DNA of 64,000 nt, from contig NZ_JBBIAB010000003.1 in NCBI RefSeq assembly GCF_039634785.1, positions 325,724-389,723 of the forward strand. Direction: 5' to 3'. The translations under genes were made by a program, and so were the position numbers. The notes under the pieces are model-generated. The model had not been told where the DNA came from and did no database searches. It was given only the letters and a program-made list of their open reading frames with translations. The DNA comes from Tistrella mobilis (GTDB lineage Bacteria; Pseudomonadota; Alphaproteobacteria; Tistrellales; Tistrellaceae). Of this stretch, positions 1 to 7,840 are shown in pieces; within the stretch, counting starts at the first letter, position 1, and the number at the start of each line of letters is the position of its first letter.

Positions 1-1142
1 ATTTCTTCCCCTATATGCCCCCGGTCGGGGAGCTGATGGGCCAGAGCTTCGAAGACGTCATCCGCCACAGCATGGTGGCACCGGGTGTCGTGCTCGATCC
101 GCTGGCCCGGACCGATCCGGATGCCTATATCGCCAAGCGCCGCCACCGGCTGCACAACCCGAAGCCCCAGCCCTTCGAGCAGCTGACCGCCGGACGCTGG
201 CATCTGGTCCGCGAGGTCAGGGTGCCGGGCGTCGGCTTTTTCGGCCTGCGCAGCGATATCACCGACATCAAGCAGCGCGAGATCGAGCTGAAGATGGCGC
301 GCGACCACCTGGCCCGCCAGACCCAGCAGCTGGCGGAGGCCCGCGAGGTGGCGATCCGTGCCCGCGAGATCGCGATCGCCGCCCGCCTGGAAGCCGAGCG
401 CGCCAACACCGCCAAATCGGAATTCCTGGCGCGGGTCAGCCACGAGTTGCGCACCCCGCTGAACGCGATCCTGGGCTTTTCCGAAATCATCCGCGATCAG
501 CTGCTGGGCGATCAGGCGCCGCAGCGCTATGCCGAATACGCCGCCGACATTCACCATGCCGGTTCCCATCTGCTGAAGCTGATCGACGACATCCTCGACA
601 TGGCCAAGATCGAGGCCGGCCGGCTGGATCTGATGGTCGACGAGGTGGATCTCCACGGCCTGCTGCGCGAGCTGGTGCACACCTGCCGGCCGCTGGCCCG
701 CCGGAACACCAACCGGTTCGAGACGCAGATCCCCAACGACATCGGCACGTTGAAAGGCGATGTCACCCGGCTGCGGCAGGTGGTGCTGAACCTTCTGTCC
801 AATGCCTGCAAATTCACCCGCGGCGGCGCGGTGACCCTGGCCGCCCGACGGCTCGGCTCCGTCGACGGCCGGGGCGACCTGATCGAAATTACGGTCACCG
901 ATACCGGCATCGGCATGACCGAGGCGCAGCTTGCCCGGGTTTTCGAAGATTTCATCCAGGCCGATGCCTCCATCGCCCGCACCTATGGCGGCACGGGGCT
1001 GGGCCTGCCGATCTGCCGGCGGCTCTGCCTGCTGATGGGTGGGGATATCCGCCTGGACAGCAGCCCCGGCAGGGGCACCATCGCCCGGGTGATCCTGCCG
1101 GTGGCCGGCCCGCCCGGCATTCGCCCCGCCCCGGCCGACTGA
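1..1142 (+). CDS. PAS-containing sensor histidine kinase, 5' end outside window
   Basis: The reading frame is open from the first complete codon at position 3, so the gene begins upstream and only its last 380 codons are visible. Counting from the Met at position 15, a PAS/PAC end (GFFGLRSDITDIKQ, about residues 74-87) is followed by an Ala/Arg/Glu-rich helical linker. Next is a HisKA domain with the phospho-acceptor His in VSHELRTPLN (about residue 143). A HATPase domain follows with an N box (NLLSNACKF), G1 (DTGIGM) and G2 (GGTGLGL). No receiver domain follows before the stop. The family autophosphorylates on His and passes the phosphate to a response regulator, and none is adjacent here. 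The signal is unknown because the sensor N-terminus is missing. Confidence 0.9.
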   Translation, partial: FFPYMPPVGELMGQSFEDVIRHSMVAPGVVLDPLARTDPDAYIAKRRHRLHNPKPQPFEQLTAGRWHLVREVRVPGVGFFGLRSDITDIKQREIELKMARDHLARQTQQLAEAREVAIRAREIAIAARLEAERANTAKSEFLARVSHELRTPLNAILGFSEIIRDQLLGDQAPQRYAEYAADIHHAGSHLLKLIDDILDMAKIEAGRLDLMVDEVDLHGLLRELVHTCRPLARRNTNRFETQIPNDIGTLKGDVTRLRQVVLNLLSNACKFTRGGAVTLAARRLGSVDGRGDLIEITVTDTGIGMTEAQLARVFEDFIQADASIARTYGGTGLGLPICRRLCLLMGGDIRLDSSPGRGTIARVILPVAGPPGIRPAPAD

Positions 1143-1289: not shown

Positions 1290-2285
1290 ATGATGTCGTC
1301 TGACACGCCGACCAGTGGATCGGTCCGCCCCAAAGCGGGGAGCGGTCTGGATCCGCGCCTCAGGCGGGCCCAGGCCCGCCACGCCTTCGCGATCCTGGTG
1401 CTGCCGGCCATCGGCAGCCTGATCGCCATCGGCCTCGCCGTCCATGACGGCGGCGTCCCGGCCGCGGCCCTGATTATTCTGCTCGTGTCCTATATGGCCA
1501 CCTATGCGGGCATCACCGTCGGGCTGCACCGGCTGTTCGCCCATCGCGCCTTCGAGACCACGCCATGGCTGCGGGCGGTGTTCGCCGTGCTCGGCTGCAT
1601 GGCGGCCCAGGGACCGGCGATCTACTGGGCGGCCAATCACCGGGTCCATCACATCCGTTCGGACCGTGACGGCGACCCGCACAGCCCGCGGATCGCGAAC
1701 GGGCGGCAGCTGGGGCGCTGGGAAGGGTTCTGGCACGCCCAGGCCGGCTGGACCTTCAGCCACCGCCCGGCGGATGTCTTCGCCGTGACCCGCGACCTGA
1801 CCCGCGACCGGCTGCTGATGTGGATCAACCAGCGCTATCTGTGGTGGGTGGCCCTGGGGCTGATCCTGCCGGCGCTCGCGGGTGCGCTCGCCATCGGCGG
1901 CATCCAGGGCGCGGTGCTGGGCCTGCTGTGGGGCGGCGCGGTGCGGCTGACCCTCAGCTACCACTTCACCAATGCGATCAATTCGCTCACCCACATGATC
2001 GGCACCCGGCCCTTCGGCGGCCGGAACACATCGACCAATCTGTGGCCGATCGCCCTGCCGACCCTGGGTGAGGCCTGGCACAACAACCACCATGCCTTCC
2101 CCACCTCCGCCCGCTTCGGCCTGGCGGTCTGGGAGGTGGATATCGGCTGGTGGATCATCCGCAGCCTGGAAGCCGTGGGGCTTGCCTGGAATGTCCGCCG
2201 CCCCCTGCCCGAGAGCATAAGCGCCAAGCGCGCCGCAGCCGCCGCAGGCATGCAGGTCGACGACGACGACCGCGTGACGGCCTGA
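1290..2285 (+). CDS. Membrane acyl desaturase (stearoyl-CoA/acyl-ACP type, possible acetylenase)
   Basis: This is a 331-aa integral membrane fatty acyl desaturase. It carries the three His boxes of the family: HRLFAHR at residues 80-86, HRVHH at 117-121 and HNNHH at 264-268, which bind the di-iron centre. Hydrophobic segments flank them at about 33-75, 92-113 and 185-215. Two ATGs lie in tandem (1290 and 1293) right after a G-rich Shine-Dalgarno, so the start is uncertain by one codon. It is followed at 190 bp by an ACP gene and then a fatty acyl-AMP ligase. The desaturase, ACP and ligase trio recalls JamABC/TtuABC, where the desaturase makes a terminal alkyne. A plain delta-9 desaturase is equally possible from sequence alone. 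Confidence 0.88.
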   Translation: MMSSDTPTSGSVRPKAGSGLDPRLRRAQARHAFAILVLPAIGSLIAIGLAVHDGGVPAAALIILLVSYMATYAGITVGLHRLFAHRAFETTPWLRAVFAVLGCMAAQGPAIYWAANHRVHHIRSDRDGDPHSPRIANGRQLGRWEGFWHAQAGWTFSHRPADVFAVTRDLTRDRLLMWINQRYLWWVALGLILPALAGALAIGGIQGAVLGLLWGGAVRLTLSYHFTNAINSLTHMIGTRPFGGRNTSTNLWPIALPTLGEAWHNNHHAFPTSARFGLAVWEVDIGWWIIRSLEAVGLAWNVRRPLPESISAKRAAAAAGMQVDDDDRVTA

Positions 2286-2342
2286 ATGCCCCGCCCGGCC
2301 GCCCTGATTGCGGCCGCATCTCACCCCGGGTGGCCTGATCAG

Positions 2343-2369
2343 AAATTATCGCGCTGGACGCGAAATTTT
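2343..2369 (+). terminator. Imperfect inverted repeat after the desaturase gene
   Basis: TCGCG (2349-2353) and CGCGA (2359-2363) form a 5-bp stem with a 5-nt loop. AAATT/AATTT arms extend it across one bulged base, and TTTTC follows. It could be a weak terminator of the desaturase transcript or an operator in front of the ACP gene. The 2286-2477 gap is AT-rich for this genome and also has a repeated ATATCA near 2386-2405, so the ACP operon may have its own promoter. I could not place a convincing -35/-10 pair. Confidence 0.35.
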
Positions 2370-2477
2370 CTCTGGTCTCAAGCGTATATCATGCGCATAT
2401 CAACCCAAGATTGAGTGTTTTCCAGCCTCTCTGACCCTTCCAACGCCGGGCGCAGCCCGCAGCCGGAGACTTGTTCC

Positions 2478-2774
2478 ATGAACACCCAGACCACGCTTCC
2501 TGGCGCCCAGCAGGCCGCCGCTGGTGCCCAGGCGGCCACCCGCCCCGATGCCGCGGCTATCGAGGCCTGGCTCGTCGACTATCTGGCCGACCGCCTGGGC
2601 CGCGATCGCTCCGAAATCCGCCGGACCGAACGCTTCGAGCGCATGGGCGTCGATTCGCTCGCCGTCGTTTCGATGACCGGCGAGCTGGAAGAATGGCTCG
2701 GCCGCAAGGTGGAGCCCACGCTCGCCTACGATCACCCCACCGTCCAGGATCTTGCAGCCGCCCTTGCCGGCTGA
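2478..2774 (+). CDS. Acyl carrier protein
   Basis: This is a 98-aa phosphopantetheine-binding carrier protein. The attachment Ser is S60 in GVDSLAVV, followed by the usual acidic helix and the DHPTVQDLA segment typical of PKS/NRPS-type carrier domains. The first 25 residues are an Ala/Gln-rich tail. I chose ATG 2478, which has GGAGAC upstream at a suitable distance; a longer frame from 2415 lacks a ribosome site. It lies between a desaturase and a fatty acyl-AMP ligase, the enzyme class that loads fatty acids onto such carriers. It is therefore probably the acyl scaffold of this cluster and not the housekeeping AcpP (inference). Confidence 0.9.
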   Translation: MNTQTTLPGAQQAAAGAQAATRPDAAAIEAWLVDYLADRLGRDRSEIRRTERFERMGVDSLAVVSMTGELEEWLGRKVEPTLAYDHPTVQDLAAALAG

Positions 2775-2801
2775 GGCCGTGCCCCGACCGGAGTTCGCGC
2801 C

Positions 2802-3701
2802 ATGTCACCTGATACCAACCAGATCCATCCCACCAGCCCCGCCGGCGGCCACCCCGGCACGTCGTCGGATGCGCTGCGTTCGCATTACGACATCGGGACC
2901 GACTTCTTCGGTCTGTGGCTCGACCCGTCGCTGACCTATTCCTGCGCGCTCTACGAGGCCGGCGATACCGATGATCCGGCGGGCTTCCTGGCCGCCCAGA
3001 CCCGCAAGCTGGACTTCCACATCGATCAGGCCCATGCCGCCGGCGCGGAGCGGGTGCTGGATATCGGCTGCGGCTGGGGTTCGATGATGCGGCGGCTGGC
3101 GGAGCGCGGCGCAGGCCACGTCACCGGCATGACCATGACCGAGGCCCATCGCACCCATGTGACGAGCTTCGGCGACCCCAGGCTCGAGGTCGCCCTGACC
3201 CCCTGGGCGGGGTTCGAGCCCGAGGCGCCCTATGACGCGATCGTGTCGCTGGAGGCCTTCGAACATTTCGCCCGGCTGGACTCGACCGAGGCGGAGAAGA
3301 AGGCCGGCTATCGCGCCTTCTTCGAACGCGCCCATTCCTGGCTGAAGCCGGGCGGGCGGATGTCGATCCAGACCATCGTCTACGGCCGGGCGACCAAGGC
3401 GGATTTCAGCGCCTTCTGCGCCGCCGAAGTCTTCCCCGACAGCGACCTGCCGCGCCTGCACGAGATCATGGAAGGCTGCGACCGCCTGTTCGAGGTGGAG
3501 CGCCTGCGGTGCGACCGCGAGATGTATGTCCGCACCTTCCAGAGCTGGCTCGACGGGCTTCGGGCCAATCGCGCGGCGGCCGAAGCCATCGTCGGTCCCG
3601 CCGTGGTCGATCGGTTCGAGAAGTATTGCGGCGTGTTCATGATCGGCTTCCACACCGGCGCCATGAACCTGGCCCGGATCGGCTTCCGCAAGGCCGGCTG
3701 A
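2802..3701 (+). CDS. Cyclopropane-fatty-acyl synthase-like SAM methyltransferase
   Basis: This 299-aa class I methyltransferase belongs to the CFA/mycolic-acid cyclopropane synthase family. The family signature HYDIGTDFFGLWLD (about residues 28-41) is followed by LTYSCALYE and the SAM-binding motif VLDIGCGWGS (85-94). The C-terminal FHTGAMNLARIGFRK also fits the family. It lacks the extra N-terminal domain of E. coli Cfa and is nearer in size to mycobacterial Cma/Mma enzymes. These enzymes transfer a methyl or methylene group from SAM to an acyl-chain double bond. Next to a desaturase, ACP and acyl-AMP ligase, the likely substrate is an unsaturated acyl-ACP (inference). The gene sits 27 bp after the ACP and 15 bp before the ligase, so co-transcription is likely. 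Confidence 0.87.
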   Translation: MSPDTNQIHPTSPAGGHPGTSSDALRSHYDIGTDFFGLWLDPSLTYSCALYEAGDTDDPAGFLAAQTRKLDFHIDQAHAAGAERVLDIGCGWGSMMRRLAERGAGHVTGMTMTEAHRTHVTSFGDPRLEVALTPWAGFEPEAPYDAIVSLEAFEHFARLDSTEAEKKAGYRAFFERAHSWLKPGGRMSIQTIVYGRATKADFSAFCAAEVFPDSDLPRLHEIMEGCDRLFEVERLRCDREMYVRTFQSWLDGLRANRAAAEAIVGPAVVDRFEKYCGVFMIGFHTGAMNLARIGFRKAG

Positions 3702-3716
3702 GCGAAGGGGGCATCG

Positions 3717-5501
<1,785 letters not shown>

Positions 5502-5504
5502 CGG

Positions 5505-6668
5505 ATGGAGCCCGCCTGGTCGGCGCAAGAGGAGCTGCGCATCTTCCGCCATGCCGTGCGCGGCTTTCTGGCCACGGAATTCGTGCCCCGGCTCGACGCC
5601 TGGCGCGCGCAGGGCATCGTCGACCGCCAGGCCTGGACGGCGGCGGGTGCGATGGGCCTGCTGCTGACCGAGCACGACCCGGATCTGGGCGGTGGCGGCG
5701 GCAGTTTCGCGACCGAGGCGATCGTCTACGAAGAGCTGGCGCGGATCGGCGACACATCCTTCTGCAAGGGCGTGCATGAATGCTGCGCGGGCTATATCCG
5801 CGCCTATGGCACGCCGGAACAACGGCGCCGCTGGCTGCCGGACCTTGCCGCCGGGCGGCGCATCGGCGCCATCGCCATGACCGAGCCCGGCAACGGATCG
5901 GATCTGAAGGCGGTGCGCACCACCGCCCGGCCGCAGGGGGACCACTATCTGGTCTCGGGCTCCAAGACCTTCATCTCCAACGGCGCCTCGGCCGATCTGA
6001 TCCTGCTGGTGGCGACCGTGGACCCGGCAGCGGGCGCGAAAGGCATCACCCTGCTGGTGCTGGAAACCGACGACCTGCCCGGCTTCCGCCGCGGCCGACG
6101 GCTTGCCAAGATGGGCCAGTGCGGCCAGGACACCTCGGAACTCTTTTTCGACGACATGATCGTGCCGGCCACCAACCGGCTGGGGGCGGCCGACGGTCTG
6201 GGGTTCGGCCAGCTGATGTCGCAGCTGGCCTATGAACGCCTGATCATCGCGGTGCAGGCGGTGACCTTTGCCGAGCGCGCGCTGGCGCTCGCCGTCGACC
6301 ATGCCATGACCCGCGAGACCTTCGGCCGGCCGCTGATCGACCATCAGGCGCTGCGCTTCGCCCTGGCCGATGCCCGTACCGAAGCCCATACCGGCCGGGT
6401 GCTGGTCGACGACTGCATCGCCCGCATCATTCAGGGCCGGCTGGACGCCGAAACCGCGGCCATGGCCAAGCTCTGGACCACCGAGATGCAGGGCCGGGTG
6501 GTCGATGCCTGCCTGCAGGTCTTCGGCGGGGCGGGCTACATGGCCGAACACCCGCTGGCACAGATGTATGTCGATGCCCGCGCCCAGCGGATCTATGCCG
6601 GCTCCAACGAGGTGATGAAGGAAATCGTCGCCCGCGGCCTGGCGACATTGAAGGGGTCCCCGCAATGA
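5505..6668 (+). CDS. Acyl-CoA (acyl-ACP) dehydrogenase, long-chain type
   Basis: This 387-aa FAD flavoprotein has the acyl-CoA dehydrogenase signatures AMTEPGNGSD (about 124-133) and GGAGYMAEHPL. The position of the usual short/medium-chain catalytic Glu carries Ala (IYAGSNEVMKE). A Glu is present instead at the long-chain/isovaleryl position in AYERLIIA (about E244), so the active site is probably intact but of the LCAD/IVD kind. The enzyme introduces an alpha,beta double bond. It starts 3 bp after the ligase stop and ends in an ATGA overlap with the next gene, implying tight coupling. In this context the substrate may be acyl-ACP (inference). Confidence 0.92.
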   Translation: MEPAWSAQEELRIFRHAVRGFLATEFVPRLDAWRAQGIVDRQAWTAAGAMGLLLTEHDPDLGGGGGSFATEAIVYEELARIGDTSFCKGVHECCAGYIRAYGTPEQRRRWLPDLAAGRRIGAIAMTEPGNGSDLKAVRTTARPQGDHYLVSGSKTFISNGASADLILLVATVDPAAGAKGITLLVLETDDLPGFRRGRRLAKMGQCGQDTSELFFDDMIVPATNRLGAADGLGFGQLMSQLAYERLIIAVQAVTFAERALALAVDHAMTRETFGRPLIDHQALRFALADARTEAHTGRVLVDDCIARIIQGRLDAETAAMAKLWTTEMQGRVVDACLQVFGGAGYMAEHPLAQMYVDARAQRIYAGSNEVMKEIVARGLATLKGSPQ

Positions 6669-7840
6669 CCGATACCCGGCCGCTCGACGCCCGGCGCGCC
6701 ATCGACGCCCGCGCGCTCTACGACCACCTGACCGGCAATGGCAGCCGGTTCCTGCGCGTGGGGGAGCTGCTGACCGCGGGGGCGGAAGCCGCCCCCGAGC
6801 TGCTGCCCGATGCGCAGACCCTTGCAGCCGAAGCCGCCCGGCCGCTTTCGGCCAAGACCGGGGTGGAGATGGCCCAGGCGCTGTTCCTGCAGGCGATCTT
6901 CGCCGACCGCGCCCGCGGCCTGCATCTTTGCCATGCGATGCAGCTGCCCCGCCCCGAGGCCGCCGCCAATGCCGCGCGGCTCGCCCGGGACGGCGTGCTG
7001 GATCTGGGTCTGGTCCGGGTGGAACGGCACGGCCGGCTGCTGGTGGTGGAGAACCGCAATGCCGGCCGGCTGAATGCCGAGGACGTGCCCACCATCGACG
7101 CGCTGGAACATGCGGTCGATGCCGCCCTGCTGGACGAAGAGAGCACCGCCTGCATCCTGCGCGGCGGCGTGGTCGACCATCCCCGCTATGCCGGGCGCCG
7201 GCTGGCGGGGGCCGGGCTGAACCTCACCGATCTCTACGAGGGCCGCGTGCCCTATGTGATGTATATCGAGCGCGAAATGGGCTGGGTCGCCAAGGTCTTC
7301 CGCGGCCTGGCGGCCCCCGACCGCCTGCCCGACGAACTGGCCGAGACGCGCGAGAAGGCCTGGATCGGGGTGATCGACGGCTTCGCGATCGGCGCCGCCA
7401 CCCAGGCGCTGCTGGTCTGCGACGCGGTGGTGGCAGAGGCCGGCAGCTGGTTCAACGTGCCCGCCCGCAAGGAAGGGCTGGTGCCGGGCTGCACCAATCT
7501 GCGCCTGCCGCGGATCATGGGCGACCGGCTGGCCCGCCAGATCATCATGAACGGCCGCACCATCCGCGTGGACGAGCCCGAAGCCCGGCTGCTGATCGAC
7601 CGCGTGGCCGAACCCGACGGGCTGGAGACCGCGATCGACGAGGTGGCGGCCGATCTGGTCGATGGCGGCGTGGTCTCGATCGCCGGCAACCGCCGCGCCT
7701 TCCGGGTGGCCCAGGAACCGCTGGACCTGTTCCGCGCCTATCTTGCGACCTATACCCGCGAGGTGGCGGTCTGCCATCTGAGCCCGGCGCTGGTCGCCAA
7801 TCTGGAGCGGCACTGGACCGGGCGGAAGGCGCGCGGCTGA
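6665..7840 (+). CDS. DpgC-like enoyl-CoA hydratase/isomerase family oxygenase
   Basis: This 391-aa crotonase-fold protein has a long helical N-terminal extension of about 115 residues. The core motif GGVVDHPRYAGRR (167-179), then AGAGLNLTDLY, and later GLVPGCTNLRLPR and EPEARLLIDRVAEPD, closely match DpgC. DpgC is the cofactor-free 3,5-dihydroxyphenylacetyl-CoA 1,2-dioxygenase of vancomycin-type pathways. None of the other dihydroxyphenylglycine genes (DpgA, B, D) is here, so the substrate is presumably different. The start ATG overlaps the dehydrogenase stop (ATGA), so the two proteins are probably made together and may act in sequence on the same acyl chain. Hydration or isomerisation instead of oxygenation remains possible. 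Confidence 0.82.
   Translation: MTDTRPLDARRAIDARALYDHLTGNGSRFLRVGELLTAGAEAAPELLPDAQTLAAEAARPLSAKTGVEMAQALFLQAIFADRARGLHLCHAMQLPRPEAAANAARLARDGVLDLGLVRVERHGRLLVVENRNAGRLNAEDVPTIDALEHAVDAALLDEESTACILRGGVVDHPRYAGRRLAGAGLNLTDLYEGRVPYVMYIEREMGWVAKVFRGLAAPDRLPDELAETREKAWIGVIDGFAIGAATQALLVCDAVVAEAGSWFNVPARKEGLVPGCTNLRLPRIMGDRLARQIIMNGRTIRVDEPEARLLIDRVAEPDGLETAIDEVAADLVDGGVVSIAGNRRAFRVAQEPLDLFRAYLATYTREVAVCHLSPALVANLERHWTGRKARG

What the first reader, a model, noticed from the sequence alone, without database searches (positions are those of the whole stretch)
1290..7840. Compact acyl-tailoring cluster: desaturase, ACP, CFA-type methyltransferase, FAAL, LCAD-type dehydrogenase, DpgC-like oxygenase
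Seen: six genes on one strand, the last five with gaps of 27, 15, 3 and -4 bp, encode every part needed to load a fatty acid on a dedicated carrier and modify it. The steps would be desaturation, methylation or cyclopropanation, alpha,beta-dehydrogenation and a crotonase-fold oxygenation or hydration. Known: FAALs load ACPs; CFA enzymes act on double bonds; DpgC uses oxygen without cofactor. Inference: this is a self-contained pathway to an unusual lipid or signal, with no PKS or NRPS. I do not know a described cluster with this exact set.
Basis: partly seen in the sequence, partly recalled or inferred. Interest (0 to 1): 0.85.

Follow-up and report, generated by a model that had tools for sequence, protein, structure and literature searches.

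The report
Carrier-bound fatty acid tailoring operon
A plasmid-type operon of the bacterium Tistrella appears to hang a fatty acid on its own carrier protein, desaturate and methylate it, and then oxidise it with an unusual oxygen-using enzyme; parts of it recur in distant bacteria in front of different partners, but this exact combination was seen only in Tistrella and its product is unknown.

Summary
Six intact genes at the stated positions encode a desaturase, an ACP, a CMAS/CFA-family methyltransferase, a FAAL, an LCAD-type dehydrogenase and a DpgC-family protein (gaps 129, 27, 15, 3, -4). All are conserved with dN/dS 0.04-0.30 in Tistrella mobilis. The ligase is a FAAL, not a CoA ligase (501 bits to a solved FAAL domain; best CoA ligase 98). 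No PKS/NRPS is nearby.

The full set was found only in Tistrella. A core, desaturase-ACP-methyltransferase plus FAAL, recurs in Polaromonas, other Burkholderiales, Thalassospira, Pseudonocardia and Rhodococcus. There it feeds type I PKSs or is paired with a P450 and a thioesterase; in Sphingobium a LuxI synthase replaces the desaturase. So it is a JamABC-like portable cassette with an added methyltransferase, and Tistrella couples it to ACAD + DpgC.

(1) The methyltransferase has Glu/Gln where cyclopropane synthases have Gly/His, as in hydroxymycolate synthase MmaA4, so cyclopropanation is unlikely. (2) The DpgC-like protein lacks both hydratase glutamates and keeps Glu189/Arg254/Gln299/Ala319, so oxygenation is likelier than hydration. 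It is a divergent member (14 family-conserved positions changed). My best mechanism, oxygenative release of a 2-oxo fatty acid from ACP, is inference.

The parts
1290..2285 (+). membrane fatty acid desaturase (FADS type, histidine boxes HRLFAHR / HRVHH / HNNHH)
   Evidence: Pfam FA_desaturase 1.5e-21; best plasmid-collection hits are the desaturases of the same cassette in Polaromonas (49%) and Rhodococcus (44%)
2349..2363 (+). terminator-like hairpin between desaturase and ACP (weak, consensus only)
   Evidence: scan, 4 sites found versus 1.8 expected in the region
2415..2774 (+). stand-alone acyl carrier protein, GVDSLA phosphopantetheine site; likely true start ATG 2478
   Evidence: PP-binding 3e-15; Ser conserved in ACPs of the related cassettes; GGAG upstream of ATG 2478
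2802..3701 (+). CMAS/CFA-family S-adenosylmethionine methyltransferase, single-domain, with Glu151/Gln190 in the MmaA4-like positions
   Evidence: Pfam CMAS 1.8e-52; PDB alignments; family alignment and tree
3717..5501 (+). stand-alone fatty acyl-AMP ligase (FAAL)
   Evidence: best solved relatives are FAALs (7r7g 501 bits, 3kxw 394, FadD32 about 290; best CoA ligase 98); NCBIfam FAAL models 370-385 bits
5505..6668 (+). LCAD-type acyl-CoA/acyl-ACP dehydrogenase; helix-G glutamate (AYERL) present, Ala at the MCAD Glu376 position (IYAG)
   Evidence: Acyl-CoA_dh N/M/C domains; human LCAD 8w0t 7e-85 and 2pg0 1e-90
6665..7840 (+). DpgC-family crotonase-fold protein, predicted cofactor-free oxygenase
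   Evidence: NF042432 2.3e-95; DpgC 2np9/5kag 1e-76, aligned residues Glu189/Arg254/Gln299/Ala319 conserved

Best explanation
A self-contained acyl-ACP tailoring operon. The FAAL adenylates a free fatty acid and loads it on the dedicated ACP (inferred from family). The membrane desaturase supplies a cis double bond (inferred; before or after loading). The CMAS-type methyltransferase transfers a methyl group from SAM to that double bond on the ACP-bound chain; its Glu/Gln active-site pair predicts that the carbocation is not closed to a cyclopropane but is quenched as in hydroxymycolate synthase MmaA4, giving a methyl-branched carbinol (or methyl-alkene). The LCAD-type dehydrogenase makes the 2-enoyl thioester. 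The DpgC-like enzyme deprotonates it to a (di)enolate, adds O2 at the alpha carbon without a cofactor and in doing so cleaves the thioester, releasing a methyl-branched 2-oxo (probably 3-enoic) fatty acid. This would explain why the operon has no thioesterase although related cassettes carry a P450 plus a thioesterase in the same place. Shown here: gene identities, FAAL rather than CoA ligase, conservation and selection, recurrence of the core, residue patterns. Inferred: substrate, order of steps, product and its role. My confidence by step: ACP-bound tailoring operon about 0.85; non-cyclopropane methyl product about 0.5; ACAD acting on acyl-ACP about 0.6; DpgC-type alpha-oxygenation about 0.5; oxygenative release as 2-oxo acid about 0.3.
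For: Tight five-gene operon whose methyltransferase is kept in all three Tistrella genomes searched, with purifying selection on all six genes. FAAL identity. Core cassette desaturase-ACP-MT-FAAL in Polaromonas, Pseudonocardia, Thalassospira, Rhodococcus opacus and Burkholderiales genomes, always with an ACP beside the MT where it could be read. MT: Glu151 aligns with MmaA4 Glu146 (a residue that binds an active-site water, PMC8708032) and Gln190 with the Gln of MmaA4; CmaA1, CmaA2, PcaA, MmaA2 and UmaA have Gly/His there; the His is a bicarbonate ligand strictly conserved in cyclopropane synthases (PMC9821293). DpgC: Glu189, Arg254, Gln299, Ala319 equivalents kept (Glu139, Arg203, Gln247, Ala267), while the two glutamates of enoyl-CoA hydratase are Gln and Ala as in DpgC. 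DpgC relatives sit beside dpgA/B and beside phenylglycine pgl genes, whose PglA is proposed to oxidise the alpha carbon of phenylacetyl-CoA (PMC7089894). FAAL-ACP-ACAD sets that dehydrogenate a loaded fatty acid are known in friulimicin-type pathways (PMC9113097). Thioesterase (PF00975) and P450 in the matching position in Thalassospira.
Against: No biochemistry or metabolite. The DpgC-like protein has 14 changes at positions conserved in the other family members, including the oxyanion-hole Gly296 (Ala244) and Phe231 (Ala181), sits on a long branch and has the highest dN/dS of the operon (0.30): it may have another reaction. The Gln is shared by a wide subfamily of methyltransferases and the Glu also occurs in one unrelated alphaproteobacterial copy, and MmaA4 Ser178 is Ile here, so the MmaA4 resemblance is partial. 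The ACAD is nearest to ordinary LCADs, not to known acyl-ACP dehydrogenases such as MbtN. The tailored chain could be handed to a PKS/NRPS elsewhere in the genome.
Confidence: 0.45

Rival explanations
1. Starter-unit factory for a remote assembly line: the operon makes a methylated, 2-enoyl acyl-ACP that is handed to a PKS or NRPS encoded elsewhere, as the same core does in cis in Burkholderiales.
For: In Polaromonas and two Burkholderiales genomes the core lies directly beside ketosynthase/PKS genes, and the Tistrella methyltransferase groups with these copies (support 83/86 and 90/87). The Tistrella FAAL is closest to NRPS-loading FAALs of cyanobacteria and Burkholderia (51% and 48%). The genome has several large PKS proteins.
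Against: No ketosynthase on the contig closer than about 233 kb; no PKS/NRPS in the window or 20 kb upstream. A DpgC-type oxygenase that cleaves the thioester would end the chain, not pass it on.
Confidence: 0.2
2. Dedicated signal or membrane-lipid pathway with hydratase-type or isomerase-type crotonase chemistry (RpfF/DSF-like or dienoyl-AHL-like) rather than oxygenation.
For: Crotonase-fold proteins act in acyl signal synthesis (crotonase gene needed for a 2,4-dienoyl AHL in Mesorhizobium, PMC10470506). The DpgC-like protein has lost conserved positions of its family. The same ACP-MT-FAAL core is linked to a LuxI synthase in Sphingobium.
Against: Both catalytic glutamates of the hydratase/RpfF type are absent (Gln247, Ala267), and DpgC-specific residues are kept. 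No LuxI or LuxR gene recognised at the Tistrella locus.
Confidence: 0.15
3. Catabolic operon: the enzymes degrade or salvage an unusual fatty acid or aryl-acid, with ACAD and DpgC acting on CoA thioesters.
For: Proteobacterial DpgC relatives lie beside CoA ligases, a CoA transferase, an enoyl-CoA hydratase and SDR genes (L012, L066; assigned by BLAST or by eye from sequence). The ACAD is LCAD-like.
Against: The operon has a FAAL and ACP in place of a CoA ligase, plus a desaturase and a methyltransferase that build rather than degrade; no thiolase or hydroxyacyl-CoA dehydrogenase in the operon.
Confidence: 0.1
4. The methyltransferase makes a cyclopropane, so the product is a cyclopropyl 2-oxo or 2-enoic acid.
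For: CMAS family (1.8e-52), and the catalytic Glu (E140 of CmaA1) is kept.
Against: His167 of CmaA1 is Gln and the Gly of the SxGAFEHF motif is Glu.
Confidence: 0.2

Closest known systems
JamABC alkyne cassette and polyyne clusters (FAAL, membrane desaturase, ACP)
   Same: stand-alone FAAL, membrane desaturase and dedicated ACP encoded together and moved between lineages (PMC8406139, PMC11837247)
   Different: adds a CMAS-type methyltransferase, an ACAD and a DpgC-like protein; no polyyne desaturase triad, rubredoxin or thioesterase; acetylenase activity of the desaturase not tested
Mycolic acid modification (desaturase, MmaA/CmaA methyltransferases on carrier-bound meromycolate, FadD32 FAAL)
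   Same: same logic of desaturation, SAM-dependent methylation on the double bond and a FAAL; methyltransferase residues like MmaA4
   Different: no FAS-II/Pks13 condensation, distant identity (best PDB hits about 120 bits), ends in ACAD and a DpgC-like enzyme
Lipopeptide initiation (FAAL-ACAD-ACP of friulimicin, taromycin and relatives)
   Same: FAAL, ACP and an acyl dehydrogenase encoded together
   Different: no NRPS with a C-III domain; ACAD nearest to catabolic LCADs; extra desaturase, methyltransferase and DpgC-like protein
DpgC and PglA (alpha-oxygenation of arylacetyl-CoA in glycopeptide and phenylglycine biosynthesis)
   Same: fold and key residues Glu189, Arg254, Gln299, Ala319
   Different: no DpgA/B/D, Pgl or aromatic genes; linked to a fatty acyl-ACP; 14 family-conserved positions changed

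Membership tests
Fatty acyl-AMP ligases (FAAL) | sequence closer to FAALs than to acyl-CoA ligases | tested here: met
   501/394/298 bits to solved FAALs versus at most 98 bits to CoA ligases; NCBIfam FAAL models
Fatty acyl-AMP ligases (FAAL) | transfers acyl-AMP to an ACP, not to CoA | not testable with these tools
   needs enzyme assay
CMAS/CFA methyltransferases | CMAS family match and SAM motif, catalytic Glu of the AFEHF motif | tested here: met
   Pfam CMAS 1.8e-52; LDIGCGWG and AFEHF present
Cyclopropane synthases (CmaA1, PcaA, Cfa) | Gly/His pair of the bicarbonate site (Gly137/His167 of CmaA1) | tested here: not met
   Glu151 and Gln190 instead
Hydroxymycolate synthase MmaA4 type | Glu146 plus Gln at the His167 position, Ser178 | tested here: inconclusive
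   Glu and Gln met, Ser178 is Ile; whole protein only about 113 bits
DpgC-type dioxygenases | Glu189, Arg254, Gln299, Ala319 and absence of both hydratase Glu | tested here: met
DpgC-type dioxygenases | oxyanion-hole Gly296 and score over the equivalog cut-off | tested here: not met
   Ala244; 320 bits versus cut-off 530
Enoyl-CoA hydratases / RpfF | two catalytic glutamates (rat ECH Glu144 and Glu164) | tested here: not met
   aligned positions are Gln247 and Ala267
JamABC cassette | FAAL + desaturase + ACP encoded together | tested here: met
JamABC cassette | desaturase acts as acetylenase on acyl-ACP | not testable with these tools
   activity and JamB phylogeny not available here
Acyl-ACP dehydrogenases (LipB/MbtN type) | closer to these than to catabolic LCADs | tested here: not met
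   MbtN model 120 bits versus acryloyl-CoA reductase 262; LCAD 8w0t 289 bits; LipB itself not compared

The most novel reading that the evidence does not exclude
A DpgC-type cofactor-free oxygenase recruited from arylacetyl-CoA chemistry to a fatty acyl-ACP, where it both oxygenates the alpha carbon and releases the chain, giving a methyl-branched 2-oxo-3-enoic fatty acid: a new way to end a fatty-acid-derived pathway without thioesterase, PKS or NRPS.
Probability: 0.27. Interest if true: 0.78.

Novelty: new variant of a known kind. Interest (0 to 1): 0.56.

Why it matters
It shows a mobile acyl-tailoring cassette (desaturase-ACP-methyltransferase with a FAAL) that different lineages plug into different partners: PKSs, P450 plus thioesterase, a LuxI signal synthase (there without the desaturase), or, only in Tistrella, ACAD plus a DpgC-like oxygenase. 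If the Tistrella version works as proposed it would be, as far as I could find, the first DpgC-type oxygenation of a fatty acyl chain and a compact, easily expressed six-gene route to an unknown lipid or signal in a genus known for the anticancer didemnins.

Tried and rejected
Whole set conserved in distant taxa: not found. The nearest DpgC relatives (Burkholderiales MAGs L010/L011, 52%) stand alone; L012 and L066 lie in CoA-catabolic surroundings. Other alphaproteobacterial methyltransferase hits (L031-L036) are not in ACP/FAAL cassettes. CoA-ligase reading of the AMP-binding gene rejected. Hydratase/RpfF reading of the crotonase-fold protein rejected on residues. PADLOC search gave only a weak generic methyltransferase match (mad2), judged irrelevant. 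Two genome-search runs with loci as centre failed and were replaced by genome handles. One structure search failed for wrong coordinates. Structure prediction was not run because sequence matches to solved structures were already decisive for the folds. JamB desaturase phylogeny could not be tested. An ACP between methyltransferase and desaturase in L058 could not be read as a clean ORF.
Full report
What is there. The window lies in a Tistrella genome (G000:C3:325724-389723); the same genes are at 95-99% protein identity on plasmid pTM3 of T. mobilis KA081020-065. Pfam and NCBIfam give FA_desaturase, PP-binding, CMAS, AMP-binding (FAAL models), acyl-CoA dehydrogenase and DpgC, all with very low E-values. 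Between Tistrella genomes dN/dS is 0.11 (desaturase), 0.04 (ACP), 0.07 (MT), 0.22 (FAAL), 0.10 (ACAD) and 0.30 (DpgC-like), so all six are maintained. All three Tistrella genomes searched carry the MT. The desaturase is separated from the ACP by 129 bp (192 bp if the ACP starts at ATG 2478) with a weak hairpin; the last five genes are tightly packed. A PAS-containing histidine kinase lies 147 bp upstream and starts before the window; a link to the operon is not shown.

The ligase. The best solved relatives are FAALs (7r7e-g about 500 bits, 3kxw 394, FadD32 about 290); the best CoA ligase gets 98 bits. In the plasmid collection the Tistrella FAAL is closer to FAAL parts of cyanobacterial and Burkholderia NRPS proteins (51%, 48%) than to the FAALs of the related cassettes (38-43%), whereas its desaturase and methyltransferase are closest to the cassette copies (49% and 51% to Polaromonas). 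The operon therefore looks mosaic.

A recurring core. The methyltransferase led to the same neighbourhood elsewhere. Desaturase-ACP-MT followed by a desaturase and ketosynthase proteins, with a FAAL upstream, in Polaromonas JS666 plasmid 2. Desaturase-ACP-MT-P450-hydrolase-FAAL in Pseudonocardia alni and Thalassospira marina, the Thalassospira hydrolase being a PF00975 thioesterase. Desaturase-ACP-MT-P450-FAAL in Rhodococcus opacus. FAAL-desaturase-desaturase-ACP-MT-KS-P450-hydrolase-PKS and FAAL-desaturase-MT-PKS-PKS in two Burkholderiales genomes. LuxI-ACP-MT-FAAL in two Sphingobium plasmids. Samples of 385 Alphaproteobacteria, 399 members of the phylum and 349 Burkholderiales (partly overlapping groups) gave the cassette only in Tistrella and those two Burkholderiales genomes, so it is rare and patchy, as expected for a horizontally moving cassette. 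In the methyltransferase tree Tistrella groups with the Burkholderiales PKS-linked copies (83/86, 90/87), moderate support.

The methyltransferase. Aligned with solved enzymes, CmaA1, CmaA2, PcaA, MmaA2 and UmaA have Gly and His at the positions where Tistrella has Glu151 (SLEAFEHF) and Gln190 (SIQTIV); MmaA4 (hydroxymycolate synthase) has Glu146 and Gln. The His is one of the bicarbonate ligands described as strictly conserved in cyclopropane synthases (PMC9821293), and Glu146 of MmaA4 binds an active-site water (PMC8708032). The related cassette enzymes have Gly plus Gln. Inference: no cyclopropane; probably a methyl carbinol or methyl alkene. Caution: MmaA4 Ser178 is Ile here and overall similarity is low.

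The dehydrogenase. LCAD type: human LCAD and 2pg0 are the best solved relatives, with Ala at the MCAD Glu376 position and the helix-G Glu present (sequence, known families). Friulimicin-type clusters show that ACAD proteins encoded with FAAL and ACP dehydrogenate the starter acid (PMC9113097); that this ACAD uses acyl-ACP is inference, and its nearest relatives are catabolic.

The DpgC-like protein. DpgC (2np9, 5kag) is by far the best solved relative (1e-76; next 2e-13). Using the printed alignment, DpgC Glu189, Arg254, Gln299 and Ala319 correspond to Glu139, Arg203, Gln247 and Ala267 and are invariant across 13 compared members, including those beside dpgA/B and those beside pgl phenylglycine genes. 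Gln299 and Ala319 stand where enoyl-CoA hydratase has its two catalytic glutamates, so a hydratase or RpfF role is unlikely (the roles of these DpgC residues are from my knowledge of the DpgC structure papers, not retrieved here). PglA of the phenylglycine pathway is proposed to oxidise phenylacetyl-CoA at the alpha carbon (PMC7089894), which shows that a phenol is not needed; that the homologues in L040/L043 are PglA is my reading of their neighbours. Against a simple DpgC label: 14 positions conserved in the other members are changed, among them the oxyanion-hole glycine (Ala244) and Phe231 (Ala181); the branch is long; and the equivalog cut-off is not reached. In the tree it falls with proteobacterial homologues, which occur alone or next to CoA-catabolic genes.

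Putting it together. Loading (FAAL, ACP), desaturation, methylation, alpha,beta-dehydrogenation and alpha-oxygenation with thioester cleavage form a coherent order, and the last step would replace the P450 plus thioesterase found in the sister cassettes. The identity of the parts and the recurrence of the core are shown; substrate, order, product and biological role are inferred. A remote PKS partner cannot be excluded, but the nearest ketosynthase on the contig is about 233 kb away.

Novelty. The parts are known and the FAAL-desaturase-ACP triad is the JamABC plan (PMC8406139, PMC11837247). I found no paper on a triad with a CMAS-type methyltransferase, nor on a DpgC-type enzyme acting on a fatty acyl chain, in ten full-text searches of open papers; subscription papers are largely missing from that library. 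I rate it a new variant of a known kind, of moderate to good interest.

Noticed in passing
L018:7884-11764 and L019:7878-11639 (Sphingobium plasmids pSRL2 and pTomMM15a): A LuxI-family AHL synthase gene (PF00765 3.7e-25 in L018; close homologue in L019) overlaps the ACP gene, which is followed by the same methyltransferase and a FAAL: a candidate dedicated supply of a methyl-modified acyl chain to a quorum-sensing signal.
   Followed up: partly
L057 and L058 (two Burkholderiales genomes), L014 (Polaromonas JS666 plasmid 2): FAAL-desaturase-ACP-methyltransferase cassettes directly beside type I PKS genes, so the cassette probably makes an unusual PKS starter unit; products unknown.
   Followed up: partly
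L066:8112-12290 and L012:8790-12290: Proteobacterial DpgC-family genes beside CoA ligase and other acyl-CoA genes, suggesting an undescribed catabolic use of cofactor-free alpha-oxygenation.
   Followed up: no
L034:3980-6390 and L035:9040-11464: CMAS-type methyltransferase genes next to a roughly 485-residue protein with a PilZ domain and a methyltransferase-like domain, in two alphaproteobacterial genomes.
   Followed up: no
L036:6014-8746: CMAS-type methyltransferase beside a FAD_binding_4 oxidoreductase, an arrangement resembling the 10-methyl fatty acid (BfaA/BfaB) pair as I recall it.
   Followed up: no
window 1-1142: PAS histidine kinase 147 bp upstream of the desaturase on the same strand, conserved in T. 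mobilis (95%) with no response regulator seen beside it; it starts before the window.
   Followed up: partly
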